A stretch of 64,000 bases of DNA from Bartonella sp. WD12.1 (lineage in GTDB: Bacteria; Pseudomonadota; Alphaproteobacteria; Rhizobiales; Rhizobiaceae): positions 682,001 through 746,000 of the forward strand of contig NZ_MUBG01000001.1 in the NCBI RefSeq assembly GCF_002022415.1, written 5' to 3'. Positions within the stretch are counted from its first letter, which is position 1. Every line of letters begins with the position of its first letter. Below are positions 28,681 through 60,290 of this stretch, piece after piece. The translations under genes were made by a program, and so were the position numbers. The notes under the pieces are model-generated. The model did no database searches. It was not told the origin of the DNA and saw only the letters and a list, made by a program, of their open reading frames with translations.

Positions 28681-28698
28681 ATATGGTGGGCAATGAGA
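28681..28698. other. attachment site attL
   Basis: 18-bp copy of the tRNA-Val 3' end (ATATGGTGGGCAATGAGA), identical to 60273-60290. It is the displaced tRNA end left at the far junction, 86 bases from the integrase gene. Confidence 0.88.
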
Positions 28699-28733
28699 TC
28701 GCCTTATAATACAATAAAATCAGTATGTTATGT

Positions 28734-28795
28734 AAAAAATAAGGGAATCTAAGACTCTTGATTTTATTGAGTTTTTTTGTGCTCTATCCCTTATT
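28734..28795 (-). terminator. hairpin at the 3' end of the integrase gene
   Basis: AATAAGGGA (28738-28746) pairs with TCCCTTATT (28787-28795), with A6 on the left giving a U-run for leftward transcription. The loop is 40 nt. The stem enters the last codons of the integrase gene. Confidence 0.45.
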
Positions 28796-29827
28796 TTTTT
28801 GGAGCTTTTCGATTGATTCGAGAGCCAATCTTTTGCGATCAGCAGTCTTTGTGTAGAGAGATGCCATTTGATCATCAGTCCATCCAAAAATTGCTTTAAG
28901 TTGTGCGACCGTAGCACCTGCATTGGCAGCTCTTGTTGCAGCTAATTTTCTTAAACCATGAGCTGATTTTTTTATTCCCGCTGCATTGCAAGCATCTCTA
29001 AACAGGTTCCCAAAGGTTTCTTTGGTTAGTTTTTTCCCCCCTTTCCCACAAATAAATGTTTCATCACCAATAGGACCCATTTCAAGAGTTTTTGCTAATT
29101 CGGGTAGAATGGGAAGAAACACATCTGTTTGAAATTTGCTTTTTTCTGTCTTTAAATGAATGACATTATCCGTGACATCCTTCCATCCGATGCGTACAAC
29201 ATCTCCCCGTCGTAAGCCTGTGTAAAGAAGAACATCAATCCATACCCGTTCATGCGTTCCGAGAGGCCATTGTTGATAATATTTGTCGATGTCCTCTTCT
29301 ATCCAAGCAGGGAATCCATCCTTGTTTTTGAGAAATGGTGTTTTAACCCCTAAAGCAGGATTATTTTCTAAAAGTCCTTGTTCAACTGCCCATTTAAAAA
29401 GGCCATTAACTGCTTTGAGAAAATTCCGAGCATTTGCAGGTGTTTCTTTGCGTCGTTCAACGCCGGCTATGATATGCGACTTTTTAATTGCTTTGTATGG
29501 AATATCTCCTATGGCATCTGACACTTTCATTAGAATAAGTTCTTTTTGCCTTTTCGTAGCATGAGCTAGGTTATGCCAAGTGACGCTGTCAAAATATTGT
29601 TTCAGGAGCCATATAAAACTACCTTCAACGAGTTTACCAGGTTTAGATTTAGGAAGCTTGTATCCTTGTAACTCAGAAAGAGCATCTTTATAGTCGTCAA
29701 CAAATTCTTGTGTACCATAGGTTCCACGCACTCTACGCCTTTGACCATGGCCAATACGCACGTACCATACGATTTTACCATAGCGCGTAATTTCTTTGAC
29801 AAGGTGGGGAGGCCGTGGTTTAGGCAT
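28784..29827 (-). CDS. tyrosine-recombinase integrase
   Basis: 347 residues, phage-type. An N-terminal arm/core-binding part (SAM-like region around KAIKKSHIIAGVERR) is followed by the catalytic domain: Arg in LLYTGLRRGD, HGLRK (His290, Arg293), Trp316 in FGW and nucleophile Tyr325 in LYTKT. It lies at the left end of the prophage next to attL and would catalyse recombination at the tRNA-Val site. RBS AAGG 7 bases before ATG 29827. Confidence 0.95.
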   Translation of the reverse strand: MPKPRPPHLVKEITRYGKIVWYVRIGHGQRRRVRGTYGTQEFVDDYKDALSELQGYKLPKSKPGKLVEGSFIWLLKQYFDSVTWHNLAHATKRQKELILMKVSDAIGDIPYKAIKKSHIIAGVERRKETPANARNFLKAVNGLFKWAVEQGLLENNPALGVKTPFLKNKDGFPAWIEEDIDKYYQQWPLGTHERVWIDVLLYTGLRRGDVVRIGWKDVTDNVIHLKTEKSKFQTDVFLPILPELAKTLEMGPIGDETFICGKGGKKLTKETFGNLFRDACNAAGIKKSAHGLRKLAATRAANAGATVAQLKAIFGWTDDQMASLYTKTADRKRLALESIEKLQKNKG

Positions 29828-29836
29828 AGCGTGACC

Positions 29837-30049
29837 TTACATACCAATATCAAAGTCATAATCACCCTTTGAGAGATCTAATAATCTGTCTGGATGAGTA
29901 GCAGTATTTGGTATGGCGATATCAGCTTTGAGATAAATTAAGAGTTCACCAGTTGGTTTGATTTCCATTAACTCACAACCTTGCTTTTTAGCTTCTCTTA
30001 AAGCTCTTGCAATAGCGGACTGTGTTACGGCAGCGTGGCGACGAGCCAT
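29837..30049 (-). CDS. small prophage protein upstream of integrase
   Basis: 70 residues from ATG 30049, which has AAGGA 8 bases upstream; an upstream ATG at 30076 lacks one. The sequence begins MARRHAAVTQSAIARALREAKK, a basic helix-turn-helix-like start, and ends acidic (LSKGDYDFDIGM). It sits directly before the integrase with a 9-base gap, a place where excisionase or small regulators are often found. That role is only inferred from position. Confidence 0.6.
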   Translation of the reverse strand: MARRHAAVTQSAIARALREAKKQGCELMEIKPTGELLIYLKADIAIPNTATHPDRLLDLSKGDYDFDIGM

Positions 30050-30167
30050 GTTGAATTTCCTTAATTTTGATTGCACTTCACCTGTGGTGAAAAGTGCGCA
30101 TGTGTGAGAGAGTGATTGAAAATGGGTGGGGGCGCTTAGGGGAGGGAGAACAGCGCCCCCTATGGGT

Positions 30168-30788
30168 TTAAGCAGCTTGCGTCAAGAATTGCATATCTTG
30201 TTCTATTTCTGCTAAAAATGCTTCAACAGCTTTATTGATGAGCTCAATCTGTTCATCATCACGTGGGATGCGTAAAGTTTTGATACACAAATGAGGTGAT
30301 TTATCTATAAACCAAGGATGATAGCTAACAAAATCACACCATTTTCGTTCTGTGCAAGCCATTTGGAATTGCATTTGTAAAATATATTCAGGTTTGATTT
30401 TACCGTCTCGCAAAAAACGGACATGGGTTGTTTCTTGAGGGCATTTGACTTCTATGAGGCCCCCATCTCCAATGAGACCATCAGGACTAGCGCCTGCCAT
30501 TTCAATTGTCGGATGGGGAATAAACCCACATCGTGTGACAGGAGTATCGTAAAGAAAGCTATATTCTTCAATTGCACTGTCTTCATATTCATTGCCCCAT
30601 CGCATGGCAGGTGTTTCATAAGATGATATTGTTTTACCAGTTAAACGTTCTGTAATGAGCTTGATTTTGTACTCTTCATATTTACTTGTGGGTAAGCCTT
30701 TAGCTGTTTTATCGACGATGCTGTTAATGTTTGAAGCTGTGACTTTACCTAAACGCGCTTGAAACCATTCTGCTGTTCTTTGTTCCAT
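30168..30788 (-). CDS. YqaJ/lambda-exonuclease family recombinase nuclease
   Basis: 206 residues. PD-(D/E)XK exonuclease: TAEWFQARLGKVTAS at the N-terminus, MRWGNEYED, then the catalytic Asp in GASPDGLIG and Glu-x-Lys in LIEVKCPQ. Such 5'-3' exonucleases expose single strands for an annealase. The start codon ATG 30788 lies just after the TGA of the Bet gene (stop 30790-30792), so the pair is coupled. Confidence 0.92.
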   Translation of the reverse strand: MEQRTAEWFQARLGKVTASNINSIVDKTAKGLPTSKYEEYKIKLITERLTGKTISSYETPAMRWGNEYEDSAIEEYSFLYDTPVTRCGFIPHPTIEMAGASPDGLIGDGGLIEVKCPQETTHVRFLRDGKIKPEYILQMQFQMACTERKWCDFVSYHPWFIDKSPHLCIKTLRIPRDDEQIELINKAVEAFLAEIEQDMQFLTQAA

Positions 30789-30789
30789 A

Positions 30790-31566
30790 TCACACCCCCG
30801 TTGAAGCTTGTTGAATTGGTGTGTGTGGTTGTTTTGGTAAAGGTAAAGCTTGTTGTGCTTCTTCCATTTGTAAGTGTTGTTTTGCTTCCAAACGCCTTAA
30901 AACAATTTGCCCTGTCTCATGAGACATTTCTGCGAGATTTGTGACCTTTGCATAAGAGAGTACTTTTGCTTCTTCTGTTTTTGTTTGTTCCATTAAATCT
31001 TTGATTTGCTCAAGTAAATCATGAGATATTCTCTCGTTTTGGGGGAGATAGTTAGCCTCATTAATACGATCAGCTTCATCTTCATCATAGATACCAGATA
31101 AACCGAATGCATAACGAGCACACTGTATCAGTGCCTTATGACGTAACATGCGAGCAGGACATTGATTCCAAGGTTCTGTATTTCGCTTACATTCTTTGAG
31201 ATATTCTGTGATTTTTATGGGATATTTCTTATCTTTTAAATGTATAGTGCACGTAACAGAAAACAGATTGCCTTCATTATCAAAGTTTTCTTCAAGTTCT
31301 ACCCCATCGAGACTAGGGTGTGAATTTATGACCTTAAGCCACCCATCAACAGAGACAGTTGCGATAATGCCGCCCCCTCTTTTAGGGATGGCATATATTT
31401 CTTTGTTTAGAGGGTCTAATCCATATTTTTTGGCAAGATAAACAAAGACCAAAAACTCAGCATTAGAAATATTACCGCTAATACATGTTTTGAAAATTGC
31501 TTCACGAAATTCTTGTTCTGATAAATCATATTGTTGCGCCATTTTTGCAACGAGAGGAGTTGTCAT
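30790..31566 (-). CDS. Bet/RecT-type single-strand annealing protein
   Basis: About 258 residues from ATG 31566, which has AAGGA 8 bases upstream (the frame is open to 31614). The Bet signature is clear: AEFLVFVYLAKKYGLDPL, KEIYAIPKRGG, TVSVDGWLKVI and PARMLRHKALIQCARYAFG. It pairs complementary single strands in phage recombination and works with the YqaJ nuclease encoded next to it. Confidence 0.93.
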   Translation of the reverse strand: MTTPLVAKMAQQYDLSEQEFREAIFKTCISGNISNAEFLVFVYLAKKYGLDPLNKEIYAIPKRGGGIIATVSVDGWLKVINSHPSLDGVELEENFDNEGNLFSVTCTIHLKDKKYPIKITEYLKECKRNTEPWNQCPARMLRHKALIQCARYAFGLSGIYDEDEADRINEANYLPQNERISHDLLEQIKDLMEQTKTEEAKVLSYAKVTNLAEMSHETGQIVLRRLEAKQHLQMEEAQQALPLPKQPHTPIQQASTGV

Positions 31567-31648
31567 TATCGTTATCCTTAACTTTGGGTACACCCCACCT
31601 GTGGCGTGAAGCACGCGTGTTTTGAAAAAGGTGTGTTTGAATTAATTT

Positions 31649-32473
31649 TTAGATGTATTGAGAAGAAAACGTTGTTGCTGTTCTTTTAAAATCAGCAACT
31701 TTGGCATTAGCAAAGCCGTTAATTTCTTCTTGAGTGTGGATTTGTTTGCAGAGTATCATACTCAGGCGTTTTAATCCTTTAGATGTAATTTTTGCGCTAG
31801 GAACGGTTCTTTCTCGTCCACTGATTGTTTGAATGGTTTCGGGTATATAAGCCATCAATCCTTCATTGATTTTACTATAATAAGGCATCAAACTTTTATC
31901 AGTACGACAATAAATCCAACGACGATTAATCAAATAGTTCGCTAAATCTTCAGGACACATGTCTAACATTTTTGCTACATCATTTATACTAAGCAAATCA
32001 TCAGAGCGTTCTAAAGGTTTAAGTGCTTCTGTCTTTGGTGTTAATTCAGCAATGATATAATCTTTACGTTCATTTTCATTTTTTAAGTACGTAAAAACAC
32101 CTAAGATGACCTGAGGATTAGAATAGTCAATTTGAGAAGGGTTCATTTGTTTTGTTTTTCGTTCACACTCAATGAAATATTGACGAGCTTGCTTACCTTT
32201 CTCATTACGTTCAATCATAGCAAGTTCTTTAGCCATGTCTAAAGTAAGGTAGTATTCTGTACTTGGACGAGCGTTTTGTTTGGATTTTACTAAAATTTTA
32301 GTAAAACTCACAAAGTCCTTATTTTCTAGGAAACCGTACTCTTTAATACGATTAGCTATCCAATCGTTAAAATTGAAGTTAACTTCCAAGAACGTATACA
32401 ACTCACGTGCATTGACTGTTTGTACAGTTTCTTGATTAATTGTGTGTTCCCAAATGGCGATAGGCATTTCCAT
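31649..32473 (-). CDS. AntA/KilAC-domain phage antirepressor
   Basis: 274 residues from ATG 32473 (GAGG 6 bases upstream; the frame opens at 32485). The N-terminal AntA domain (VNARELYTFLEVNFNFNDWI, YYLTLDMAKELAM, KGKQARQYFIECE) is joined to a C-terminal KilAC DNA-binding domain (INDVAKMLDMCPEDL, KGLKRLSMI). Such proteins inactivate the phage repressor during induction. It is in the leftward operon driven by the promoter at 32942-32970. Confidence 0.9.
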   Translation of the reverse strand: MEMPIAIWEHTINQETVQTVNARELYTFLEVNFNFNDWIANRIKEYGFLENKDFVSFTKILVKSKQNARPSTEYYLTLDMAKELAMIERNEKGKQARQYFIECERKTKQMNPSQIDYSNPQVILGVFTYLKNENERKDYIIAELTPKTEALKPLERSDDLLSINDVAKMLDMCPEDLANYLINRRWIYCRTDKSLMPYYSKINEGLMAYIPETIQTISGRERTVPSAKITSKGLKRLSMILCKQIHTQEEINGFANAKVADFKRTATTFSSQYI

Positions 32474-32526
32474 TGCAGACCTCATAGTGTTTGGATTGAT
32501 TTTTCAGATGTGTTGAAAAGAAAATA

Positions 32527-32886: not shown

Positions 32887-32941
32887 TTTCCATCCCCTCT
32901 CATTCACGTTGGCAAATGGTTCTTTCTAAGTTATGGGGATA

Positions 32942-32994: not shown

Positions 32995-33051
32995 TTTTTG
33001 GATTTATAATCCACATAATAATTATGATTTTAAATATAAGTTGGGAATGTT

Positions 33052-33255
33052 ATGCTAAACAATGAAAGAGAAAAACAGTTATCTGTAATGCTAGATAAGT
33101 TATCTGAAAAGGAAAAAATAGCTTTTATAAATTTCGTGCTGCAAGCAAAGATTTTAAAAGGTCCTCAACAATCTTTTTTTCAGAATCATTCGCTTGAGAA
33201 TATAAATAAAGAAAATCATCTGAGCAAAATCCAGAAACAGGTGAAGAATCTTTAA
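33052..33255 (+). CDS. possible small protein antisense to the repressor 3' end
   Basis: 67 codons, basic and helical (REKQLSVMLDKLSEKEKIAF). Its last 131 bases overlap the repressor gene on the opposite strand. TATAAT at 33005-33010 could be a -10 for it. GGGAA lies 7 bases upstream of ATG 33052. The first 24 codons are outside the repressor gene and look coding-like; otherwise the case is weak. Confidence 0.35.
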   Translation: MLNNEREKQLSVMLDKLSEKEKIAFINFVLQAKILKGPQQSFFQNHSLENINKENHLSKIQKQVKNL

Positions 33256-33463
33256 AAAACTCCATAATTTTAACAAGCTCATCGGCTTTAACATCTCTCA
33301 TTTCTTTATCTGGATTAAGATTAACAATGTTAGATATAGCTGGTCTACGCACTCCAAGATGGGCTGCAAGTTTTGCTTGACTTCCACGGCCCATTTTATC
33401 GAGTTCCTTTTTTATCCAAATTTTTAGCTCTCTTTGTTTAACCATATTTGAATTATTTCTCAT
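33125..33463 (-). CDS. XRE-type phage repressor
   Basis: About 112 residues. A helix-turn-helix (GSQAKLAAHLGVRRPAISNIV) is followed by a short C-terminal helix region; there is no S24 protease domain, so it is not a LexA-like self-cleaving repressor. The frame opens at TTG 33469 with ATGs at 33463 and 33445; the start is uncertain. Operators of one consensus flank the gene on both sides, consistent with it being the immunity repressor, relieved by the AntA-type antirepressor. Confidence 0.8.
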   Translation of the reverse strand: MRNNSNMVKQRELKIWIKKELDKMGRGSQAKLAAHLGVRRPAISNIVNLNPDKEMRDVKADELVKIMEFFKDSSPVSGFCSDDFLYLYSQANDSEKKIVEDLLKSLLAARNL

Positions 33464-33496
33464 TTTCAAAAGTCTTACAATAATTAAAAAAATATA

Positions 33497-33540
33497 AATA
33501 CGTTTATCGTATTGACTAAATGTTTCTTATATCGTATTTA
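33497..33540 (+). promoter_or_regulatory. rightward early promoter with repressor operator
   Basis: Palindrome AATACGTTTATCGTATT (33497-33513; perfect 6-bp arms) overlaps TTGACT (33512-33517). TATTTA lies 17 bases downstream (33535-33540). A CGTATT half-site (33533-33538) overlaps the -10. A repressor bound here would block the rightward promoter and probably the promoter of its own gene. Confidence 0.7.
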
Positions 33541-33546
33541 TTATAC

Positions 33547-33900
33547 ATGATAAAAACATGTACAGAAACAGCAAAACTTATAATTACGTATCTTGGTGGA
33601 TACCAGGCAGTTGCTAATATTATTAATCGCAACGTTGTTGTAGTCAGAAAATGGACTTATCCTTTTGAGAAGCGTGAAGGAAAAGGTGGCATTATTCCCG
33701 CTAAATATCAAGTTATGCTTTTGAATTACGCTAAACGCAACGACATAGACTTACGTCCTGATGATTTCTTTTATCCCGAGCGTTTGCAAGACTTAATGCA
33801 GAAAAAAGAAACACCCCCATCGTGTGAGTTTGTAGATGGTTGTGTAGTAAGCAGGGCAGGGTATGAGCAAACCGATGCGCAACAGTCATTAGGTGGGTAG
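33547..33900 (+). CDS. Cro/CII-like phage regulator
   Basis: About 117 residues from ATG 33547 (the frame opens at ATG 33520). A helix-turn-helix core is seen (YLGGYQAVANIINRNVVVV, then KWTYPFEKREGKGGIIPAKY), a pattern common in small regulators encoded opposite phage repressors. It lies only 6 bases after the -10, so the mRNA may be nearly leaderless. The stop is 2 bases before the next start. Confidence 0.75.
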   Translation: MIKTCTETAKLIITYLGGYQAVANIINRNVVVVRKWTYPFEKREGKGGIIPAKYQVMLLNYAKRNDIDLRPDDFFYPERLQDLMQKKETPPSCEFVDGCVVSRAGYEQTDAQQSLGG

Positions 33901-33902
33901 AG

Positions 33903-34706: not shown

Positions 34707-35033
34707 ATGGCCACGAAATCATCCTGGGTAAAATTTTATCCTGGCCAATTTTTAATTGAGCTTATGCTTTTGAAGCCAAAAGAAACAGCTATTTATACAA
34801 CACTGGTCTTGCTCATGCTTCATGAGCGCGCACCTATTTTTAATGATGCTTCTCATTTATCAAGTTTGTGCAGCTGTTCAGCGTGGACGTTTCGAAACAT
34901 ATTAGAATCTTTAATGAGCCGTGGTTATATCATTCGTTTAGAGAGTGGCCGTTTGTGGTACACATCATCAGCAGTTGATCTTGATATCAGTAGTACATCT
35001 TCAGAAAAAAAGGGGGAAAGCTATGTCAACTAA
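34707..35033 (+). CDS. DUF1376-like winged-helix phage protein (short)
   Basis: 108 residues from ATG 34707, preceded by AAGGAGA. The start SSWVKFYPGQFLIE and the block LKPKETAIYTTLVLLMLHE resemble the N-terminal domain of DUF1376 phage replication proteins; it has only this domain. Overlaps the next, longer DUF1376 gene by 11 bases. Probably a paralogue by duplication; role in replication is inferred. Confidence 0.65.
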   Translation: MATKSSWVKFYPGQFLIELMLLKPKETAIYTTLVLLMLHERAPIFNDASHLSSLCSCSAWTFRNILESLMSRGYIIRLESGRLWYTSSAVDLDISSTSSEKKGESYVN

Positions 35034-35541
35034 AATGCCGTGGATAAGATTCTACCTGGATGACTGGACCAGCGGTACAGGCGGAATGACACCAGAGCAA
35101 AGAGGAATTTATATTATGCTTCTTATTCGCATGTATGACAAAAAGTCACCTGTGAAAGAAGATTTCAAAACACTTGCACGCATATGCAATTGCACTCAAA
35201 AAAAGTTCACAACTGTTGTCGATTATTTAATCAAAAATGACAAGTTAATCCAAACAGATGAAGGATTATGGAATCTTCGTGTTGAAGAAGAGCTTAAAGA
35301 TTTTACTGATAAACAAGAGCATATATCACAAGTGCGCAGTGAAGCTGGAAAAAAAGGTGTACAAGCAAAAATGCTTAAAAAACAATTTGCTAATGATTTT
35401 GTTGAAGCAAACGATAAGCAAAACGATTTTTTGCTTCAAGCAAACGACAAGCAAAATCAAGCTATCCAGAATCAGAACCAGATATATAAAAAAACTAACA
35501 CTATCGTGTTATCAAAAAAGAAAATGCTTCAGAAGATTTAG
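35023..35541 (+). CDS. DUF1376 phage replication protein, N-terminal part
   Basis: 172 residues from ATG 35023, RBS GGGGGAAAG. Domain start MPWIRFYLDDWTSGTGGMTP and QRGIYIMLLIRMYDK is the DUF1376 signature, often the DNA-binding part of phage replication initiators. The frame stops at 35539-35541, but the expected C-terminal part continues in the -1 frame. A slippery A-AAA-AAG lies at 35514-35520, 7 codons before the stop. The alternative long start (34945) runs through the previous gene and is rejected. Confidence 0.82.
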   Translation: MSTKMPWIRFYLDDWTSGTGGMTPEQRGIYIMLLIRMYDKKSPVKEDFKTLARICNCTQKKFTTVVDYLIKNDKLIQTDEGLWNLRVEEELKDFTDKQEHISQVRSEAGKKGVQAKMLKKQFANDFVEANDKQNDFLLQANDKQNQAIQNQNQIYKKTNTIVLSKKKMLQKI

Positions 35542-36846: not shown

Positions 36847-36850
36847 GATC

Positions 36851-40627: not shown

Positions 40628-40638
40628 GGGTAATTGAG

Positions 40639-46725: not shown

Positions 46726-46745
46726 AAATGTTGGGAATATTATTG

Positions 46746-52101: not shown

Positions 52102-54685
52102 GTTAAGACAACCCATGACAAACGAAAAGCCTTTTGATAAGCGATTAGTTGATAAGCGATTGCTTGATACAAACTATAATAATGCTGAAGTTCTTGGTCA
52201 TATAAGTGACTTTACTCCAGAACAACTCCGAGAGATTTTCTCAAAAAATAAGGAGTTGCTTGAGAAAGCAAAAAAAAATAAAATTTCATCTCCCCCTCCT
52301 TTTGATAAGCGATTAGTTGATAAACGATTGCTTGACACAGACTATAATAATTCTCCTGTTCTTGGTCATATAAGTGACTTTACCCCAGAACAGCTCCGAG
52401 AGATTTTCTCAAGGAATAAAGAATTACTTGCTAAAGCAAGACAAAATGGTTCTATCACAAACAATAATAAACCAACGACACAAGAAGATAGTCCTAAAAC
52501 GAGTACTATGGAGGCTTTGGGATGGGGGACAGTTCACGGAGCGACTTTGGGCTATGATGATGAAATAGGAGCACTTTTTGGAAAAGAAACATATGACGAC
52601 GGAGTGAAGAGACGGCGTGACTATCAAAAGTTGTTGGCTAAAGAGCATCCTTATGCTTATTTCGCCGGTAATTTAGCTGGTGGTGTGGCAGCCCTAGTTC
52701 CTGCAATAGTTGCAGGCCCTGTTGCAGCAGGTGGTGCTGCTGTTGCACGTGGTGCGCTTGCTGCTGGACGTGCTGCTCCTGCTATTGGACGAGGTATAGC
52801 TGGTGCTATACGTGGTGCTCCTGCTGCTATGCGCGCTATGCCTTCAGCTGTACGCGCTGTTCCCGCTGCTATGCGTGCTGCTCCTGCTGCTGTTGGACGT
52901 GGTGCACTTGCTACTGGACGTGCTATTCCCGGTGCTATACGTGCTACTCCTACAGCAGCAAAAGCTGTAGGTAAAGCTGTAATGAGTCCTGTAAATAAGG
53001 CAGCCACAAGAACTTCAGGTGCAGCTGCAGATTATGTAAGTAGAGCAGAGGCAAAAGCATTTCATTCTGCATTAGCGCAAGGAGCCACACGGGCAGAAGC
53101 AAAACTTGCAGGGGAAGCAGCTGCAAAGAAAGCCGTAGCAAAGTTTAATACAATACGCGCAGCAAAAATCGGTGGAATCTATGGAGCTATAGCAGGAAGT
53201 GGTGAAGGGGAAGGTTGGGGGAATACTATAGTAACTACTGGATTTGGTGGGGCATTTGGTGGTCTTACACCCTTTGCTCTATCAGCAGCAGCGCCTCTTG
53301 TCACAAAACCAGCTAGTGCAACGACTTCTTTTGTTAAAAAAACGCTTCCAAAATGGGTTCGTGGAAGTCAACCAGGTGAAGTTCAAATAAGCAACAAAGC
53401 GCTTAAAGAGATAAGTCGTGCTTTAGACAATGCAGGTATTCATGATCTTGACAAGGCTTTAAAGTGGAAAGGCTCTGATTCAATGATCATTGATTTAAGT
53501 GATCAGCTTGCTGCACGGGCTTTAAGAGAGGCAAAAAAAGACTATCCTACACATTCAATAATGAGCAATCGTTTAGGAGCTAGGCAAGCTGAAAGTACTC
53601 AACGTGTAAGGGAAAGACTAAATGAAACACTCGGTAAGAAAGTTAATACACTTGATTTAAAGCAAGACATTATTAACACCGCAAAAAGAGAGGCTGAACC
53701 GCTCTATGAAAAGGCATTTACTGCACCCATTGCAGAGTCTGTTATGAAAGATTTACAGCTTTTAGAAGAAAGTCCTGCATTTAATGACGCACGTAAAAAA
53801 GCAATTGCGGGCTTGTTAAACGTGGGAGATGAAACAGTTATAGCAAATCGTAAAAATCCAGAAATGAGTATGCAGATTTTGCACAGAATAAAGGGGGACA
53901 TAGATAATCAGATTAAATTAGCTCTCAGAGAAGATAATCAAACACATGCTGCAGATTTGATGAATGTGAAGGAACGTCTTCTTCGTGTTTTAGATACGTC
54001 ATCTCCACATTATACCCAAGCAAGAAAGTTTTACCATGATGAGCGCACTCTTGGCAGCGCCTTATCTCAAGGTGAAAAAGCGTTTGATAAGAATGTTACG
54101 CTTGATATGATCAAAAATCAGCTTTCAGGCTTGGAATCTAAAGAACTGGATGCGTTTAGAAAAGGTGCACGTTCACAGATAGAACATGCAGCAGCCAATG
54201 TACAAAGCCCTGAGAATAGTCTTTCCAATTTGTTTAATACGCAAAGTGGACAAGAGAAATTACGGCTCATTTATGGTAAGGATAAAGCAAACCAAATGGT
54301 GAAAGCTTTACGGCCAGAGGTTGAGAGATCAGAGTTATTTGCTCGCCTTCCAAGGAACGAGGGTGAGCTCGGATCAAAGGCAGGAGAAGCACTTGATAAT
54401 GTAAGTAAGTCTAGCCTTCGTACTACAATAATGAATTTTTTTACAGGGTCAGTCAAGCGTGGAGTGTCGTCAATCGATAGAAATGTCGAGAGAGATATTG
54501 CAGAACTCATAACAGCCCATGAACGTGGGGATGTTAGGTTATCGAGACAAAAATCTGTTGAGTTAATTAACAAGTTTCGTAAAGCAGAACAGAAGCGTTT
54601 AATCACACAAGAAGAATTTGTAAAGTTCATCAATTTGCTTAATGTTCTATCGACGGGCAGCTATATTAGAGGGCTTAAAAATTAA
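52094..54685 (+). CDS. putative DNA ejection protein 3, with N-terminal tandem repeat and Ala-rich segment
   Basis: 863 residues from ATG 52094 (AAGGA 9 bases upstream; the frame opens at 52028). Residues about 13-63 and 69-119 are a tandem duplication (FDKRLVDKRLLDT, VLGHISDFTPEQLREIFS, NKELL). Residues 200-310 are extremely Ala/Gly/Arg/Pro-rich with hydrophobic stretches, followed by a helical body to the end. The composition suits a protein that inserts in the membrane during genome delivery. Overlaps the transglycosylase gene by 1 base. Confidence 0.7.
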   Translation: MAELRQPMTNEKPFDKRLVDKRLLDTNYNNAEVLGHISDFTPEQLREIFSKNKELLEKAKKNKISSPPPFDKRLVDKRLLDTDYNNSPVLGHISDFTPEQLREIFSRNKELLAKARQNGSITNNNKPTTQEDSPKTSTMEALGWGTVHGATLGYDDEIGALFGKETYDDGVKRRRDYQKLLAKEHPYAYFAGNLAGGVAALVPAIVAGPVAAGGAAVARGALAAGRAAPAIGRGIAGAIRGAPAAMRAMPSAVRAVPAAMRAAPAAVGRGALATGRAIPGAIRATPTAAKAVGKAVMSPVNKAATRTSGAAADYVSRAEAKAFHSALAQGATRAEAKLAGEAAAKKAVAKFNTIRAAKIGGIYGAIAGSGEGEGWGNTIVTTGFGGAFGGLTPFALSAAAPLVTKPASATTSFVKKTLPKWVRGSQPGEVQISNKALKEISRALDNAGIHDLDKALKWKGSDSMIIDLSDQLAARALREAKKDYPTHSIMSNRLGARQAESTQRVRERLNETLGKKVNTLDLKQDIINTAKREAEPLYEKAFTAPIAESVMKDLQLLEESPAFNDARKKAIAGLLNVGDETVIANRKNPEMSMQILHRIKGDIDNQIKLALREDNQTHAADLMNVKERLLRVLDTSSPHYTQARKFYHDERTLGSALSQGEKAFDKNVTLDMIKNQLSGLESKELDAFRKGARSQIEHAAANVQSPENSLSNLFNTQSGQEKLRLIYGKDKANQMVKALRPEVERSELFARLPRNEGELGSKAGEALDNVSKSSLRTTIMNFFTGSVKRGVSSIDRNVERDIAELITAHERGDVRLSRQKSVELINKFRKAEQKRLITQEEFVKFINLLNVLSTGSYIRGLKN
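52130..52450 (+). repeat. 168-bp tandem duplication inside the ejection protein gene
   Basis: The segment starting CCTTTTGATAAGCGATTAG at 52130 recurs at 52298 (168-bp period, 56 codons, about 50 conserved). Copies differ at a few codons (DTNYNNAE versus DTDYNNSP), so the duplication is in frame and not very recent. Confidence 0.85.
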
Positions 54686-55554
54686 TGATTAATTTTCATC
54701 CTGATGTTCACAGTGCCATCTCCCAGGCGGCACAAAGGTATGATTTACCCGAAAGCTTTCTTAAACGCGTGGCGATGATAGAAAGTGGTGGTGATCCCAA
54801 TGCAAGAAATAAGAACAGTAGTGCAGGTGGGCTTTATCAATTTTTAGATTCAACAGCACGCCAATATAAGTTGGATAACAAGTTTGATCCACTTCAATCG
54901 ATTGATGCGATGGCACGGTTTACCAAAGACAATATCCGTTATTTGCAAACAGCTTTGGGAAGAGCACCTTCAGAAGCTGAACTTTATTTAGCACATCAAC
55001 AAGGGCCAGCGGGGGCTGCAAGGCTTATTAAAAACCCAAATGCACCAGCAAGCCAGCTGTTAACCCCCCAGGCAATAGCCCTTAATGGTGGCCGCCCTGG
55101 TGCAACAGCAGGTGATTTTATGAATCATGTTTATCAGCTGTACAATAAAACAGCACAGCCTGAGCAAGGTTATAGGCAAGCGGTTCCACCACGTGGCATG
55201 CAAAGGCTTCAAAATGTAATGCAGGGTGATCAATTGGTTGCACAGAATATGGCAATGTATCCTCAAATGGTGCCTCCTGAAAATGTTGCACGTACTGATT
55301 TTCTAAAAAAAGGCGTGGATGGTTTAACGCAGTTAATCAAAGAGAATGCGCAAAATTATGATCAACAGATACAGATGGCACAAAATCACATGATGCAGCA
55401 GCCTGTGTTTTCACAAGCAGGGGCACGCCCTGCAGATCTAACGCCTTTGATTGACCCGTCACGACGTCAACCTGTTTCTTCTTTAAATGGTCGACAAAGA
55501 GGAGATCAATTGCGCAAAGAGTTCTTAACAAGGGCAGGAGTTTATAATGTCTGA
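54685..55554 (+). CDS. SLT-type lytic transglycosylase
   Basis: 289 residues. Catalytic Glu33 in RVAMIESGGDP, then SAGGLYQFLDSTA, typical of the SLT/goose-type lysozyme fold, and YLAHQQGPAGAARL. The 130 C-terminal residues are Gln-rich. In podoviruses such proteins are virion-associated and open the peptidoglycan during DNA entry. It overlaps both neighbours by 1 and 8 bases. Confidence 0.88.
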   Translation: MINFHPDVHSAISQAAQRYDLPESFLKRVAMIESGGDPNARNKNSSAGGLYQFLDSTARQYKLDNKFDPLQSIDAMARFTKDNIRYLQTALGRAPSEAELYLAHQQGPAGAARLIKNPNAPASQLLTPQAIALNGGRPGATAGDFMNHVYQLYNKTAQPEQGYRQAVPPRGMQRLQNVMQGDQLVAQNMAMYPQMVPPENVARTDFLKKGVDGLTQLIKENAQNYDQQIQMAQNHMMQQPVFSQAGARPADLTPLIDPSRRQPVSSLNGRQRGDQLRKEFLTRAGVYNV

Positions 55555-56527
55555 TATTTATGATTGGTCACTGACAGCGGATACAAACGCACACTCAGAT
55601 GATATTATTAATTGGGCACAAGGTCAGCCGCCCAGTTCTGTTAATAATAGTGCACGTGCTATGATGCAGCGTATACGAGAATATCTTGCAGATAATGGCG
55701 GGAGTATTGAAGCAAAGTTTGTCGTCAACAGTCAAGAAAAGACGACATCAATTACACTCAATACAGTTTCTCCTATCACGGAATATAAGAATGATATCTT
55801 TATACGTTTTAAGGCAAGCGACACAAATGTTGGTGCGACAACAATAACCGTCAATCGTTTGAGTGAGAAGCCTGTTTATAAGATGACCGATGCAGGTGTT
55901 ATGCCTTTAGAAGGTGGTGAACTGCAAAAAGATGGCATTTATGAACTGGTCTATAATAACAACACACTAACAAGAAGTCTTGATGGTTGGTATTTATTAA
56001 ACCCAACCCCAAAAACACCTCCTAAGATAGAAATTTTTCCAGCTGGGTTTATTGCGACATTTGCAATGAAAGAAGTGCCAGGTGGTTGGCTTTTGTGTGA
56101 TGGTGCAAGCTATGAGCGCAAGAAATATCCTCGGTTGTTCAAGGCAATAGATATATATTGGGGAGCAGATAGCGATACTACTTTTAGAGTACCCGATTTT
56201 AGGGGGATGTTTTTACGTGGTTTTGATAATGGGCGTGGTGTAGATCAGGGTAGAAAATTTGCTGAAAAGCAGCAAGATAGCTTGAAAACGCATACACATG
56301 GCTGCACCATTGAAATGTCAGGGGCGCATGTACACCAGTATCAGTATGAGGCGTTAAGAAGACCTGGCAGTCCTATTGGTGGAAGAAACCCTGCCTTTTA
56401 TAGCCAAAATATAAGAGCAAATACAGCCTCAGCAGGTGCACATACGCATAGTGCAACGATTTATTCAACAGGTGGAGCAGAAACACGCCCTATTAATACA
56501 ACGGTTGTTTACGCCATAAAATCATAA
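55547..56527 (+). CDS. tail fibre protein with phage tail collar domain
   Basis: 326 residues. The C-terminal half is a collar domain: GFIATFAMKEVPGGWLLCDG, YPRLFKAI, FRVPDFRGMFLRGFDNGRG. Several H-x-H motifs at HTHG, HVH and HTH probably bind metal along the trimer. N-terminal residues 1-160 are the virion-attachment and shaft region. Confidence 0.88.
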   Translation: MSDIYDWSLTADTNAHSDDIINWAQGQPPSSVNNSARAMMQRIREYLADNGGSIEAKFVVNSQEKTTSITLNTVSPITEYKNDIFIRFKASDTNVGATTITVNRLSEKPVYKMTDAGVMPLEGGELQKDGIYELVYNNNTLTRSLDGWYLLNPTPKTPPKIEIFPAGFIATFAMKEVPGGWLLCDGASYERKKYPRLFKAIDIYWGADSDTTFRVPDFRGMFLRGFDNGRGVDQGRKFAEKQQDSLKTHTHGCTIEMSGAHVHQYQYEALRRPGSPIGGRNPAFYSQNIRANTASAGAHTHSATIYSTGGAETRPINTTVVYAIKS

Positions 56528-56540
56528 AGGTTTTTTAAAG

Positions 56541-56801
56541 ATGATCAATAATCCCTCGGCAATTGATGAGATTGCCGACACAGGGCAGATTCGTGTTCTT
56601 TTTTATGCAAGTCATAAATTAGTTCATGCGCCATTAAATAAGGTTCTTGATAAGGTCAAAGACGATATTCAGCATGATCTTTTGAATGTTTTTACAGCTT
56701 ACCAAAAAGAGACAGAGCAACGCATTGAGACTTTGCAAGAAGCCGTTGATGAATTGCGTTTGCAACTTGTCAATCTAACACATCCCGAAGATACAAATTA
56801 A
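56541..56801 (+). CDS. small coiled-coil phage protein
   Basis: 86 residues. The C-terminal 45 residues are a heptad-repeat coil (TEQRIETLQEAVDELRLQL). It is placed between two fibre genes, suggesting a fibre connector or assembly factor. RBS AAAG, 14 bases after the upstream stop. Confidence 0.65.
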   Translation: MINNPSAIDEIADTGQIRVLFYASHKLVHAPLNKVLDKVKDDIQHDLLNVFTAYQKETEQRIETLQEAVDELRLQLVNLTHPEDTN

Positions 56802-56814
56802 GGAATTCAAAGCG

Positions 56815-59112
56815 ATGCCTATTCCCTATCACACACACAAGTTTGAAATTGAGCCAGCGACAAATAAGGAAGTCAAAGAAGGTATTTTAGACAATAAAGT
56901 TGTTGCACCCTCTTCATTGGGGAGTGCAGCGGCTTATTCTATGGGTTATTTTGCGACTGCTGCTCAAGGAAAGAAAGCTGATGAGGCCGTTGCAAAAAGA
57001 GATGTTGGGGCACTTGCTTATAAAGATACGGTTACAGTTAATGATATAAGCACAAGTGGGGATCCTAGTGAGAATACAGTTCTATCGGGTACTGGCTGGA
57101 TAAAGCTATCGCCTTTGGGAATTGGCGATATGAGTGCTGCTATTTATGATCCTTCTAATGTGATGTCAGATGCCTTTTCTATGGAGAATATGGTTGAAGG
57201 TGATACAAAGAAGATTTTGACTGCAGAAGAAAGAGTAAAGCTACAATGGATAAGTTCTGAGTGCCCTACAATAGAAAAATGGAAGAAGGCAGATGAGGAT
57301 ATCAATTATCCTATATCTCCTGCTGATCTTAAAGATACTATCACTCATTTTACATTATCAAAATCTCTTGCGATGTCAAAATCAGTTTATGATCCAGATA
57401 AAATAGCAAAGGATGTTTTTGCTATGGATCATATGAAAGAGGGGGAGAAACACCTTATCTTAACGCCTCAAGAACGTATCCAGATTACGAAGATTAATCA
57501 AATTGAAGAGGTTGCACAGCAAGCACAAACGACAGCTCAATGTGGGGTCAATGCAGCAGGTGAGGCTAAAGAGACTGCAGATAAAGCACAAGTGGCCGCA
57601 GAGAGTGCAAAAGAAACGGCGGCGGTTGCAAAAGAGGCGGCAGTAGCTGCACAAACGACAGCTAATAGTGCAAAGAAAGCCGCTGATACTGCACAAAGCA
57701 CTGCCAATAAAGCACAAGAAACTGTAGATAAGGTGCAAAGCACTGCAGAGAGTGCAAAGGAAACGGCAGCAGATGCTTTAAGCACAGCAAAGGATGCGCA
57801 AAGCACTGCTGATAAAGCACAAGTGGCTGTAGAGAGTGCAAAAGAAGCAGCGACAAGTGCAAAAACAGTAGCTGATAAGGCGCAAGAAACTGCCGTGGAT
57901 GCAAAAGAGACTGCAGACAAAGCACAAAAAGCAGTTGATCTCATTCACCCTCTTGAAAAGCAAGATTGGATTGATGGCATCAAAGCAGAAAATGCACTGA
58001 TATCACCGGCTCATCTTGTTGCTTCTATCAAAGCAAATAGTGGCGGCAGTAGTGGGGGCAGCAGCAATAGTGTGGGTGTAGGTGTTAGCAAACCTGTTGA
58101 GATTTTCATGACGGAAAGTGGGGAAATTGCATGGCCAGAAGGGACAACTGGAGACACCGAGCTTGAAATATGGGCTTGGGGTGGTGGTAATGCTGGTGAT
58201 GATAGTGGTCGTCATGGTGGTAATGGTGGGTGTTGTACTTATGTGAGAACAAGGAAAAAGTTTCTTGGCAACAGTAAAGTAACTATCGGCAAGGGTGGAA
58301 AAACAGCTGAGAATAGCGGTTTCGCTGGGGAAAAAACAAAAGTTGGTCAGTTTATTACAGCTTCTGGTGGTTCTATCGGATACGATCCTAGTGGTATTCA
58401 TGGTGCCAGGGGCGATAATGGAGCTGATGCAGAGGATCAAAGTGGTATTGGGGGTGATGGCAAGAATGGTGAAGTTGGTAGGATAGGTGGATTTGGTGGT
58501 AATGGGGGGAAAGGGGGCAAAAGCGGTAAAAATAGTACTGGAGGGCGTGGGGGCAGTGGTGGCAGAGGGGGCGATAATTTTTTAAAAAGTGCCGGTAATG
58601 GAGGTAAAGGCGGTGATGGTGGGCGTGGCGAGAATGGTGGTAAAGGCGGCGGAGGTGGCGATGGTGGAAACAATATATATAACGGTGGCGGTGTTGGAGG
58701 TTGGGGTGGTAAAGGAGGAGATGTAGGTGCTGGTTTAGGTGGTGGAGGTGGTTGGGGTGGTGGAGGTGGTAATAGTATGTGGGGTGGTGGTGGTGGTGGT
58801 GGTATTGGAGGTAATGGCGGTGATAGTAACCAAGGAATTGGTGGTAAAGGCGGTTTAGGCGGACGTGGTGGAGACAGTATTTATGGCGGTGCAGGTGGAG
58901 GGGCAGGGGGTGGCAAAGGTGGAAAAGGCGAGAAAAACGGTAATAATGGTACTAGTGGACTTGGGGGTCATAGCATGTGGGGTGGTCGTGGTGGACAGGG
59001 AAGTATTGGTTACTATGGTGGTGGCGGTGGATATTTTCCCGGAAAAGATGCGACACCTTCATCAAGCGGTGCTGGGGGAGATGGTGCTGTGTTAATTAAA
59101 GTGTATTTATAG
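56815..59112 (+). CDS. tail fibre with Ala-rich coiled coil and glycine-rich C-terminal domain
   Basis: 765 residues. Residues 1-225 form the globular attachment part, with two copies of a YDP...MSDAFSMENM-like motif. Residues 228-378 are degenerate repeats such as AKETADKAQ and AQSTANKAQ, a long coiled coil. From about 452 to 758 the sequence is dominated by GGxGGxGG, as in adhesins built from polyglycine-II helices. The final residues are DGAVLIKVYL. Expected to be the host-recognition fibre. Confidence 0.85.
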   Translation: MPIPYHTHKFEIEPATNKEVKEGILDNKVVAPSSLGSAAAYSMGYFATAAQGKKADEAVAKRDVGALAYKDTVTVNDISTSGDPSENTVLSGTGWIKLSPLGIGDMSAAIYDPSNVMSDAFSMENMVEGDTKKILTAEERVKLQWISSECPTIEKWKKADEDINYPISPADLKDTITHFTLSKSLAMSKSVYDPDKIAKDVFAMDHMKEGEKHLILTPQERIQITKINQIEEVAQQAQTTAQCGVNAAGEAKETADKAQVAAESAKETAAVAKEAAVAAQTTANSAKKAADTAQSTANKAQETVDKVQSTAESAKETAADALSTAKDAQSTADKAQVAVESAKEAATSAKTVADKAQETAVDAKETADKAQKAVDLIHPLEKQDWIDGIKAENALISPAHLVASIKANSGGSSGGSSNSVGVGVSKPVEIFMTESGEIAWPEGTTGDTELEIWAWGGGNAGDDSGRHGGNGGCCTYVRTRKKFLGNSKVTIGKGGKTAENSGFAGEKTKVGQFITASGGSIGYDPSGIHGARGDNGADAEDQSGIGGDGKNGEVGRIGGFGGNGGKGGKSGKNSTGGRGGSGGRGGDNFLKSAGNGGKGGDGGRGENGGKGGGGGDGGNNIYNGGGVGGWGGKGGDVGAGLGGGGGWGGGGGNSMWGGGGGGGIGGNGGDSNQGIGGKGGLGGRGGDSIYGGAGGGAGGGKGGKGEKNGNNGTSGLGGHSMWGGRGGQGSIGYYGGGGGYFPGKDATPSSSGAGGDGAVLIKVYL

Positions 59113-59127
59113 AAATGGAATGAAACA

Positions 59128-59793
59128 ATGGCACGAAGGATTAGTAAAGACTGTTTAAACTGTTTAAAAAAATGGGAAGGCTTACGATTAAACGCTTATC
59201 AAGATGCATCTGGTGTTTGGACCATTGGGTATGGTCATACCGGAAAAGCTGGTAAGCCATTTGTTGTTGAAGGTATGACGATTACCAAGCAAAAAGCTGA
59301 AACTATACTTTTAACTGATTTGCAAAAATATGAAGCAGCAGTAGAAAAAGAGGTTTGCGTTGATTTAAATGATGAACAGTTTGGGGCTCTGGTTTCATTT
59401 TGTTATAATGTTGGTGTAAGTGCTTTTCAACGTTCTACCTTGCTTAAAAAGCTTAATAAAGGGGATTATGAAGCTGTACCGGCTGAATTACAAAAATGGA
59501 CAATGGCAGATGGCAAACGTTTGAAAGGTTTAGTTCACCGGCGTGCTGCTGAAGCGGGGTTATGGGCAACGAGTGCTTATGTTTCTTCTAATTATCAAGC
59601 TGTAGAAGCAAAAGAATCAACAAGTGCTTTTAAAGTAGAAATGTTAGCGCCTATCATTGGGTCTTTCTCGGGGCTTGGAGGATTACTTGCTGGTAATGGT
59701 CCAGTTCAGTGGGCTTTTGCTGCAATTATGGTTTTAGCAGCTTGTGTTGGTATTGCATTTGTTGCTCAACGTTTTTGGGAGCAACGGCTGTGA
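59128..59793 (+). CDS. GH24 endolysin with C-terminal membrane segment
   Basis: 221 residues. The T4-type lysozyme triad fits exactly: Glu17, Asp26 (8 residues between) and Thr32 in IGYGHT. Residues 1-150 are the complete lysozyme. The extra 70 residues carry a transmembrane helix near the C-terminus (WAFAAIMVLAACVGIAFVA), so the enzyme may be membrane-anchored before lysis. No N-terminal SAR signal is visible. GTGA overlap with the next gene. Confidence 0.9.
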   Translation: MARRISKDCLNCLKKWEGLRLNAYQDASGVWTIGYGHTGKAGKPFVVEGMTITKQKAETILLTDLQKYEAAVEKEVCVDLNDEQFGALVSFCYNVGVSAFQRSTLLKKLNKGDYEAVPAELQKWTMADGKRLKGLVHRRAAEAGLWATSAYVSSNYQAVEAKESTSAFKVEMLAPIIGSFSGLGGLLAGNGPVQWAFAAIMVLAACVGIAFVAQRFWEQRL

Positions 59794-60017
59794 TTTGGTG
59801 GGGAAAGAAATATTTACTAATGGTGGCGGCGGCTTTAGCCGCTTTTTTTGTAACTTTAGCTAAGGTTTTTCGGTTTGGAAAGAAAGTTGAGCAACGCAAA
59901 CGGACTGAGAAAACTTTAAAAATAGCTATAACACGGTTTGAAGTAGAAGATGAAGTTAACAAGAAAAGTGATGTGGATATACGCTCTGATCTGTCTGAGT
60001 GGGTGCGTAAAGAATGA
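59790..60017 (+). CDS. Rz-like inner-membrane spanin or holin candidate
   Basis: 75 residues from GTG 59790, overlapping the lysozyme stop by 4 bases. One N-terminal membrane helix (YLLMVAAALAAFFVTLA) then a charged helix (KKVEQRKRTEKTLKIAITRF). That layout plus an overlapping lipoprotein gene fits an i-spanin; a class III holin is the alternative, since no other holin gene is seen. Confidence 0.7.
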   Translation: MIWWGKKYLLMVAAALAAFFVTLAKVFRFGKKVEQRKRTEKTLKIAITRFEVEDEVNKKSDVDIRSDLSEWVRKE

Positions 60018-60162
60018 CTATGTTTCTTGCCTAGGATGGATGCCAATTTATTTGGATAGGCAAGACTACGATGGAATCAGTTCAAACTTAGCACGAGACA
60101 TTTTAAAGCATAATGAGAACGGAAAACGTTCATGTGGGTGGATGCCTATTAACACAAGTTAA
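59950..60162 (+). CDS. Rz1-like outer-membrane lipoprotein (o-spanin)
   Basis: 70 residues in the +1 frame relative to the Rz-like gene, overlapping it by 68 bases. The signal sequence has a lipobox LSGC (Cys19). The mature part (CLGWMPIYLDRQD, LARDILKHNENG, CGWMP) resembles small lysis lipoproteins in many prophages (W-x-P-I-Y and ILxHN motifs). It should join with the Rz-like protein to fuse inner and outer membranes. Confidence 0.82.
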   Translation: MKLTRKVMWIYALICLSGCVKNDYVSCLGWMPIYLDRQDYDGISSNLARDILKHNENGKRSCGWMPINTS

Positions 60163-60197
60163 AGGTGATTTATAAGGGTAAGTTGCAAAATCCTATT

Positions 60198-60226
60198 CCC
60201 TAACCTGATTATTTTATCCCTAACCT
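60198..60226. promoter_or_regulatory. candidate integrase arm-type sites
   Basis: CCCTAACCT occurs at 60198-60206 and 60218-60226, a 20-bp (two helical turns) spacing, 47 bases inside the attR core. The place and phasing fit integrase arm sites. Confidence 0.4.
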
Positions 60227-60272
60227 TAAATAAATATCAATAAAATCAATGGGTTATAGGGGTAAAAAAGGC

Positions 60273-60290
60273 ATATGGTGGGCAATGAGA
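60273..60290. other. attachment site attR, in tRNA-Val 3' end
   Basis: 18-bp core ATATGGTGGGCAATGAGA, same as 28681-28698. On the reverse strand it covers CCA and the 3' acceptor strand of tRNA-Val, so the phage restores the tRNA on integration. Confidence 0.9.

What the first reader, a model, noticed from the sequence alone, without database searches (positions are those of the whole stretch)
28681..60290. Apparently complete P22-ordered podovirus prophage in a Bartonella tRNA-Val
Direct: exact 18-bp att repeats, the right one in the 3' end of tRNA-Val, and an unbroken set of integration, immunity, replication, packaging, head, ejection, fibre and lysis genes. Known: Bartonella is mostly described with HK97-type gene transfer agents and other prophages; a P22-type portal with an N4-gp56 capsid is a different lineage. 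Inference: it may be inducible and form short-tailed particles.
Basis: partly seen in the sequence, partly recalled or inferred. Interest (0 to 1): 0.75.

Follow-up and report, generated by a model that had tools for sequence, protein, structure and literature searches.

The report
Twin Bartonella prophages in different tRNA genes
The stretch is a short-tailed-type virus sitting dormant in a Bartonella chromosome at a valine tRNA gene; the same chromosome holds a twin with an identical integration enzyme at a threonine tRNA site, and the virus is a relative of the bacterium's own gene-transfer particles rather than a separate lineage.

Summary
Confirmed: a prophage at 28681-60290 with exact 18-bp att repeats, the right one forming the 3' end of tRNA-Val(tac). 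Three relatives have the site empty, with one core copy. It carries a P22-type portal and an N4-gp56-type capsid.

Corrections: (1) it is not a lineage apart from the Bartonella gene transfer agent (BaGTA): the BaGTA locus of the same genome is colinear with 12 of its 17 packaging, virion and lysis genes and has the same portal and capsid families; (2) 'unbroken' is too strong: the replication-initiator gene is split into two frames.

Beyond the finding: a second copy in the same chromosome has no difference over about 17 kb of late genes and an identical integrase gene, but another immunity region, and sits at the tRNA-Thr(tgt) core in tandem with a contractile-tailed prophage. Across the genus, 15 of 31 integrases of this family could be placed at six tRNA genes, only partly in line with their phylogeny. 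The 14 BaGTA-type loci that cover the region lack two large putative ejection proteins and a transglycosylase that prophages carry. Induction was not testable.

The parts
28681..28698 (+). attL core, 18 bp, identical to the 3' end region of tRNA-Val(tac)
   Evidence: single copy in the empty sites of G038, G029 and G012
28784..29827 (-). tyrosine integrase, 347 aa
   Evidence: phrog_1 1.6e-43; Pfam Phage_integrase 8.2e-19; DNA 100% identical in twin B
30168..31614 (-). exonuclease (206 aa) and Bet/RecT-like annealing protein (274 aa)
   Evidence: phrog_149 8.6e-43, phrog_252 1.2e-61
31649..32485 (-). antirepressor Ant
   Evidence: phrog_5817 1.9e-45
33125..33900 (.). divergent immunity-switch genes (HTH regulator on -, 126-aa ORF on +); window 32954-33813 has no DNA match in twin B
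   Evidence: phrog_101 2e-5 and phrog_4 4.2e-5, weak; no family for the 126-aa ORF
34945..36095 (+). DUF1376 primosomal / replication-initiator gene, split into two frames near 35510-35545
   Evidence: phrog_3992 2.4e-41; DUF1376 5.7e-17; frames; one-frame homologues
36985..37467 (+). second antirepressor-like regulator
   Evidence: phrog_8235 9.7e-26
38432..38866 (+). single-strand DNA-binding protein
   Evidence: phrog_44 3e-45
40307..41964 (+). putative small terminase (106 aa; by position only) and large terminase (441 aa)
   Evidence: phrog_11043 (unknown function), phrog_3717 1.4e-65; 52% and 73% to BaGTA
41949..43991 (+). P22-like portal, 680 aa
   Evidence: Pfam P22_portal 1.9e-116; 65% to the BaGTA portal
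44010..44984 (+). putative scaffold, 324 aa (by position)
   Evidence: phrog_24697, unknown function; 30% to BaGTA over residues 171-321
45091..46227 (+). major capsid protein, Phage_capsid_3 (N4-gp56 type)
   Evidence: Phage_capsid_3 1.1e-71; phrog_334 4.7e-105; 68% to BaGTA
46256..46687 (+). 143-aa protein of unknown function, absent from the ten mammalian-type BaGTA loci
   Evidence: phrog_26105
46728..48898 (+). adaptor-like (237 aa) and stabilisation / nozzle-like (485 aa) proteins
   Evidence: SU10_adaptor 1.9e-9; phrog_3287 4.5e-126; several phage homologues annotated 'phage stabilization protein'
49325..50368 (+). DNA ejection protein, gp7-like by position, 347 aa
   Evidence: phrog_4287 7.3e-84, 'DNA ejection protein'; 55% to BaGTA
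50368..55554 (+). two large putative ejection proteins (577 aa, and 885 aa from the first start) by position, and an SLT transglycosylase (289 aa); no match in BaGTA-type loci
   Evidence: gene-content table
55547..59112 (+). collar fibre (326 aa), 86-aa protein, and 765-aa fibre with alanine-rich repeats and a glycine-rich tip
   Evidence: repeats
59128..59793 (+). lysozyme-type endolysin
   Evidence: phrog_7 2.1e-66; Phage_lysozyme 5.2e-50
60273..60290 (+). attR core, in the 3' end of tRNA-Val(tac)
60276..60351 (-). tRNA-Val(tac), the attB gene
   Evidence: ARAGORN; Rfam RF00005

Best explanation
The element (A) is an integrated temperate podovirus-type prophage of the phage lineage to which the Bartonella gene transfer agent belongs. 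Shown: its att cores place it exactly at the 3' end of tRNA-Val(tac), leaving that tRNA whole, and relatives show the empty site. Inferred: its tyrosine integrase recombines a phage core with the tRNA end, reading features common to tRNA ends, while the interchangeable acceptor-strand segment of 7 nt decides which tRNA is used. This would explain the twin B: identical integrase DNA, the same phage sequence up to the core on the integrase side, a tRNA-Thr(tgt) core in place of the tRNA-Val(tac) core, and a different immunity region that would let both lysogens coexist. On induction (untested) it would package its own genome through a P22-type portal into a Phage_capsid_3 head and deliver it with ejection proteins and a transglycosylase that BaGTA-type loci lack.
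For: Att repeats and tRNA; empty sites in 3 relatives; phage gene families. Twin B: 100% over 1306 bp including int; no difference in 41.0-58.0 kb or in 28.695-31.75 kb; different immunity region; tandem at tRNA-Thr. Core versus tRNA ends. Genus-wide sites: 13 of 31 attL stretches hold an exact match of 15-16 nt to a tRNA 3' end; the best was 11 with reversed ends and 12 over 20 shuffled sets. On the integrase tree the Thr, Val(tac) and Glu labels need as many changes as in 500 of 500 shuffles. In G038 a relative of A sits at tRNA-Phe with 2 core copies. BaGTA colinearity and families.
Against: No induction, circle or particle data. The replication-initiator gene is split in both A and B, and B's fibre gene is split too, so one or both may be defective. 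The attP was never seen; the core may have changed by homologous recombination between prophages. Of 31 attL stretches 16 gave no secure tRNA assignment and several lie in non-tRNA sequence. Over all labels together the target is more clustered on the integrase tree than in shuffles (16 changes, shuffled mean 20.6, as low in 0 of 200), so target and descent are not independent. The functions of the 577- and 885-aa proteins rest mainly on position; neither hit a solved structure by sequence, and the larger hit no phage record.
Confidence: 0.82

Rival explanations
1. A is a decaying, non-inducible prophage whose late genes are kept identical to B's by recent recombination or gene conversion between the two resident copies.
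For: Replication initiator split in A and B; B fibre gene split; mosaic early region against identical late region; the G038 copy has lost about 6 kb of structural genes.
Against: The other A genes named in 'parts' are open frames; no difference over about 17 kb does not suggest long decay; the splits lie at homopolymer runs, where sequencing error or slippage is possible.
Confidence: 0.4
2. The core difference between A and B came by homologous recombination with a third prophage that already carried the tRNA-Thr core, not by site-specific integration at a mismatched tRNA.
For: The early region is clearly recombinant. B. melophagi (G029) has an integrase of this family, 91% identical, with the Thr core, and a related phage right end beside tRNA-Thr(tgt).
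Against: A and B are identical from the first bases beyond the core on the integrase side, so one crossover would have to fall at or within a few bases of the core.
Confidence: 0.35
3. The twin copy B is an assembly artefact of a single prophage.
For: About 20 kb of 99.6% identity in one assembly.
Against: B has its own flanks, core, immunity region and neighbour prophage E. The IMG/VR contigs with a 100% portal may come from the same assembly and are no independent check.
Confidence: 0.04

Closest known systems
Bartonella gene transfer agent (BaGTA, Bartogtaviriformidae)
   Same: Colinear homologues of 12 of 17 genes: both terminase genes, portal, scaffold, capsid, adaptor-like, nozzle-like, 142-aa protein, gp7-like protein, collar fibre, 86-aa protein and endolysin; same Pfam portal and capsid families.
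   Different: In this genome the locus lies beside a ClpB-like ORF (recognised by eye). No homologue of A's integrase matched in the 36 kb searched; att repeats were not looked for there. It lacks matches to the 143-aa protein, the two large putative ejection proteins, the transglycosylase and the long fibre. On the portal tree the mammalian-type BaGTA loci are a group of their own.
BaGTA-like prophage clusters of Bartonella (Tamarit et al. 2018, not held; seen as cited in PMC6899734, passages)
   Same: Phage clusters homologous to BaGTA, varying in presence; portals of at least 83% identity over most of the length in 25 of 71 genomes including this one.
   Different: Twin copies with one integrase at two tRNA cores were not mentioned in the passages read; the main paper was not seen.
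P22-like podoviruses
   Same: P22_portal family; order terminase, portal, putative scaffold, capsid, adaptors, ejection proteins (the P22 order is recalled).
   Different: The capsid is Phage_capsid_3, not the P22 coat (P22 side recalled); no tailspike family among the hits. Nearest phage records by portal: Rhizobium phage RHph_Y1_10 (57.0%) and Microcystis phage Mae-JY35 (48.5%).
Mycobacteriophage Ms6 attP core retargeting (PMC1762012, abstract)
   Same: Small changes in a 7-bp part of the attP core send one integrase to another tRNA gene.
   Different: Ms6 was changed in the laboratory, between tRNA-Ala genes and at the T-loop; here the difference is natural, between isotypes, and in the acceptor strand.

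Membership tests
Temperate phage integrated at a tRNA gene | tyrosine integrase with att direct repeats, tRNA whole at one junction | tested here: met
Temperate phage integrated at a tRNA gene | empty site with one core copy in relatives | tested here: met
   G038, G029, G012
Temperate phage integrated at a tRNA gene | excision and infectious particles | not testable with these tools
   needs culture
P22-like podovirus | P22-type portal | tested here: met
   PF16510 1.9e-116
P22-like podovirus | P22-type coat protein | tested here: not met
   Phage_capsid_3 1.1e-71 was the only Pfam family hit by the capsid; so 'P22-ordered', not a P22 relative throughout
P22-like podovirus | short tail (no sheath or tape-measure genes) | tested here: inconclusive
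   no sheath or tape-measure annotation among the 30 proteins; morphology not seen
Bartonella GTA (BaGTA) | homologous, colinear structural cluster | tested here: met
   12 of 17 genes
Bartonella GTA (BaGTA) | conserved chromosomal site without its own integrase and att sites | tested here: not met
   A has both, and its site is empty in 3 relatives
Bartonella GTA (BaGTA) | packages host DNA in pieces of about 14 kb | not testable with these tools
   needs particles
BaGTA-like prophage of Bartonella | portal, capsid and terminase homologous to BaGTA, variable site and presence | tested here: met

The most novel reading that the evidence does not exclude
This Bartonella phage family sets its chromosomal address with an interchangeable core segment of about 7 nt: one and the same integrase serves many tRNA genes because it reads only features that all tRNA 3' ends share, so the phage moves between tRNA isotypes in nature without any change of integrase; the A/B twins are a snapshot of such a switch. 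In the same lineage, the step from phage to gene transfer agent went with loss of the genes for the envelope-crossing ejection proteins, which fits the published proposal that BaGTA DNA is delivered to the periplasm and enters by ComEC.
Probability: 0.37. Interest if true: 0.62.

Novelty: new member of a known kind. Interest (0 to 1): 0.45.

Why it matters
The prophage itself is one of a described kind. It matters as (1) a correction: BaGTA and these prophages are one lineage, so a phage relative exists for comparison with a domesticated particle; (2) a natural pair with identical integrase genes and different tRNA cores, which makes the question 'what does a tRNA-targeting integrase actually read?' testable with natural sequences; (3) a gene-content contrast (putative ejection genes in prophages, none found in GTA-type loci) that bears on how GTA DNA enters cells.

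Tried and rejected
'A different lineage from the GTA' was rejected. 'B is in a non-tRNA site' was my first reading, rejected when the 14-bp core was found at tRNA-Thr(tgt) 44 kb away with a contractile-tailed prophage E in between. 'Stepwise loss of ejection genes in the bee-type loci' was rejected: those genes have no match in any of the 4 covered bee-type loci, and the 4967-bp and 2481-bp gaps of L228 and L229 hold other ORFs. 'Run-off replication genes near BaGTA derive from A's early genes': in the 36 kb searched only structural, packaging and lysis genes matched; not followed. TAG stops reported inside many integrase matches were not chased; as the open frames are about full length they are probably terminal. 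L231 and L232 (class-2 prophages) and L226 (bee type) did not cover the ejection region and do not count. The TerL tree did not finish (script stopped by its time limit) and the capsid tree is only the quick one. A promoter scan of the immunity region gave 8 sites against a shuffled mean of 7.2, and no terminator. Papers: PMC9662315 (section 7 and passages), PMC3610622, PMC2697382, PMC6899734, PMC10865867, PMC11476347, PMC12429752 and PMC12946183 (passages), PMC1762012 (abstract and section list).
Full report
What is there. The window holds an integrated prophage, here called A, between exact 18-bp repeats at 28681-28698 and 60273-60290. The right repeat overlaps the 3' end of tRNA-Val(tac), 60276-60351 on the - strand. 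The genes run: integrase, exonuclease, annealing protein and antirepressor on the - strand; immunity switch; a DUF1376 replication initiator; an antirepressor-like gene and SSB; terminase, P22-type portal, putative scaffold, Phage_capsid_3 (N4-gp56-type) capsid, adaptor-like and nozzle-like proteins, a gp7-like ejection protein, two large proteins in the place of P22's other ejection proteins, a transglycosylase, collar fibre, long fibre and a lysozyme. The names of the scaffold, small terminase and two large ejection proteins go by position and recall.

Empty sites. In three related genomes (G038; G029, which by its contig length of 277,622 is B. melophagi K-2C; and G012) A's left and right flanks lie side by side at tRNA-Val(tac), with one copy of the core. 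For G012 the left-flank match ends 70 bp short of the core. This makes site-specific insertion firm.

A twin. A search of the same genome found a second copy, B, at contig 2:573626-606464. The first 1306 bp, including the whole integrase gene, are 100% identical. Over 40025-60280 there are 88 alignment differences, none of them between 41.0 and 58.0 kb (56 fall at 40.0-41.0, 32 at 58.0-60.3 kb); over 28695-32953 there is none before 31.75 kb. The region of about 32-40 kb is mosaic, and window 32954-33813 has no match in B. So the two share virion genes and integrase but probably not immunity (inference).

Where B sits. B is flanked by TGGTGCCCCCAGAG, not by A's core. That 14-mer, searched with up to 1 mismatch, occurs three times in the genome: on both sides of B and at the 3' end of tRNA-Thr(tgt) at 650835. 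Between B and that tRNA lies a prophage E of about 44 kb with its own integrase of another kind (Arm-DNA-bind_3 type) and tail-sheath and baseplate genes. In G012 the chromosome that matches G000 548001-563785 ends 1.5 kb from tRNA-Thr, and that 1.5 kb resembles phage sequence. B and E are therefore read as a tandem pair at tRNA-Thr. Against a full proof: the original left junction was not seen empty. A query of 2329 bp left of B matched in 1 of 6 genomes (G010, the part 0.8-2.3 kb from the core only), on another contig than its tRNA-Thr. tRNA-Val(tac) and tRNA-Thr(tgt) share the T-arm and ACCA; between these the 7-nt acceptor strand differs at 5 positions (anatomy recalled).

The wider pattern. 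I took the attL side of 31 integrases: A, B and the best hit in each of 29 other genomes (66 of 71 genomes had a match). Thirteen of 31 hold an exact match of 15-16 nt to a tRNA 3' end of the own genome (30 distinct tRNA sequences collected, of 38 tRNA genes found), each starting at the CCA end, at nearly constant distance from the end of the integrase (positions 295-298 of 400, and 285 for two whose matches end 4 residues short; corrected distance 104 in the five re-measured); one more has 11 nt. Controls: reversed tRNA ends at most 11 nt; shuffled ends at most 12 over 20 sets; the sense strand gave one hit, the tRNA-Arg gene itself beside L133. Two more (L130, L139) carry the tRNA-Val(tac) end found in 24 of 29 relatives' tRNA-Val loci. 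That gives six tRNA genes for 15 of 31: Val(tac) 3, Thr(tgt) 4, Phe 2, Lys(ctt) 1, Glu 2, Asn 3. The other 16 are not secure, and several are in non-tRNA sequence.

Target against descent. On a quick tree of the 31 integrases (8 of 27 inner branches well supported) the labels for Thr (4 changes, 4 rows), Val(tac) (3, 3 rows) and Glu (2, 2 rows) need as many changes as in 500 of 500 shuffles. Others are partly clustered: Phe as low in 24 of 500 shuffles, Asn in 35, 'geneX' in 3, 'other' in 0. All labels together need 16 changes against a shuffled mean of 20.6, as low in 0 of 200. So target and descent are linked, but loosely: pairs with different targets share 100% (A/B), 94.5%, 93.9% and so on, pairs with the same target 77.5-97.5%. 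Labels for L132, L133, L148 and the four 'geneX' rows were set by eye. I did not check which phage type goes with each integrase except for A, B and G038, where a relative of A sits at tRNA-Phe with two core copies and has lost about 6 kb. By contrast, integrases of Sinorhizobium phiLM21-like prophages cluster by site (PMC12429752, passages). Laboratory change of the Ms6 attP core redirected one integrase to another tRNA-Ala gene (PMC1762012, abstract).

Relation to the GTA. The BaGTA locus of the same genome (contig 2:1335148-1349222, beside a ClpB-like ORF recognised by eye) is colinear with A: TerL 73%, portal 65%, capsid 68%, nozzle-like 54%, gp7-like 55%, collar 55%, endolysin 65% identity, with the same Pfam portal and capsid families. 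I call it BaGTA because its order and sizes fit the BaGTA table in PMC3610622 (passages). Portal homologues occur in 66 of 71 Bartonella genomes; copies of at least 83% over most of the length in 25 of 71 including this one. The portal tree (45 rows, midpoint root) gives the ten mammalian-type BaGTA loci as one group (100/100), next to the two prophage groups, which join at 97/92. In the quick capsid tree the branching of these three is not resolved. The bee-type loci fall outside all three.

A difference that may matter. Of 44 loci compared by tblastn at E up to 0.01, the ten mammalian-type BaGTA loci have no match to the 143-aa protein, both large putative ejection proteins, the transglycosylase or the long fibre, with 78-135 bp between the gp7-like and collar matches (523 bp in L235). 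The four bee-type loci that cover the region also lack both ejection proteins and the transglycosylase but have a fibre homologue. The five class-2 prophages with the region covered have all three, the ejection proteins at only 21-26% identity. Of 18 class-A stretches, 17 show the 577-aa and 16 the 885-aa protein (L059 misses both, L069 the larger; the transglycosylase lies outside what was fetched). Two of four Rhizobiales outgroup loci (L076, L079) have both large proteins; L077 and L078 show neither. Loss in the GTA looks more likely than gain in the prophages, but on the midpoint-rooted portal tree the bee-type and mammalian-type loci are not one clade, so this would need two losses, or a different root. 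By genome, the 866-aa query was found in 42 of 71. A review proposes that BaGTA DNA probably reaches the periplasm and is imported by ComEC (PMC6899734, passages); loss of ejection proteins would fit. A search for Bartonella + gene transfer agent + ejection returned one paper, where the word concerns something else. The main paper on BaGTA origin is not held, so this may already be in print.

Weak points. The replication initiator is split into two frames in A and, nearby, in B; E and 8 of 23 stretches from relatives have it in one frame without a stop. B's fibre gene is split at a G tract. Sequencing error at homopolymers cannot be excluded. Induction, particle shape and packaging were not testable.

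Verdict. As a prophage it is a new member of a known kind; the twin and the loose tie between integrase and tRNA target are the parts worth following.

Noticed in passing
G000 contig 2:573615-606473 (L017, L018): Second near-identical prophage B at the tRNA-Thr(tgt) core; its fibre gene is split at a G tract.
   Followed up: yes
G000 contig 2:606474-650834 (L018, L211, L212, L086): Contractile-tailed prophage E (sheath, baseplate, own integrase) in tandem with B at tRNA-Thr(tgt). IMG/VR holds a 76,732-bp contig with a portal 100% identical to A's, about the length of B plus E.
   Followed up: partly
G000 contig 2:525899-526567 (L019): A stretch 92% like A's right end lies at tRNA-Val(gac); no portal match lies near it, so probably a remnant.
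   Followed up: partly
G000 contig 2:795880-796391 (L087): Related integrase fragment and a piece of the phage right-end sequence beside tRNA-Arg(tct).
   Followed up: no
G016, G018, G023, G024, G025, G026: In these six genomes, picked by eye, a portal at least 84% like A's lies 17.1-18.9 kb (G023: 25.9 kb) from tRNA-Val(tac) in A's orientation, so that gene may be a recurrent site.
   Followed up: partly
window 39476-40004 and 37519-38158: Two toxin-antitoxin-like pairs in A: RHH/ParE, and an addiction-module antidote with a Gp49-like partner.
   Followed up: no
window 52130-52447: Two 150-nt copies, 88% alike, starting 168 nt apart inside the 885-aa gene; the homologues differ in length.
   Followed up: no
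window 57554-58923: Fibre gene with alanine-zipper-like repeats and a glycine-rich tip; part of the few late-gene differences between A and B lie in the tip.
   Followed up: partly
window 27228-28463: Porin / outer-membrane-protein gene next to attL; the flank has several partial matches elsewhere in this genome.
   Followed up: no
L225 12526-12984; L227 11918-12376; L229 14053-14514; L228 2385-2840: A protein of 151-153 aa lies between the gp7-like and collar genes of the four bee-type GTA loci; the L225 copy has no Pfam family and no clear match to A's proteins.
   Followed up: partly
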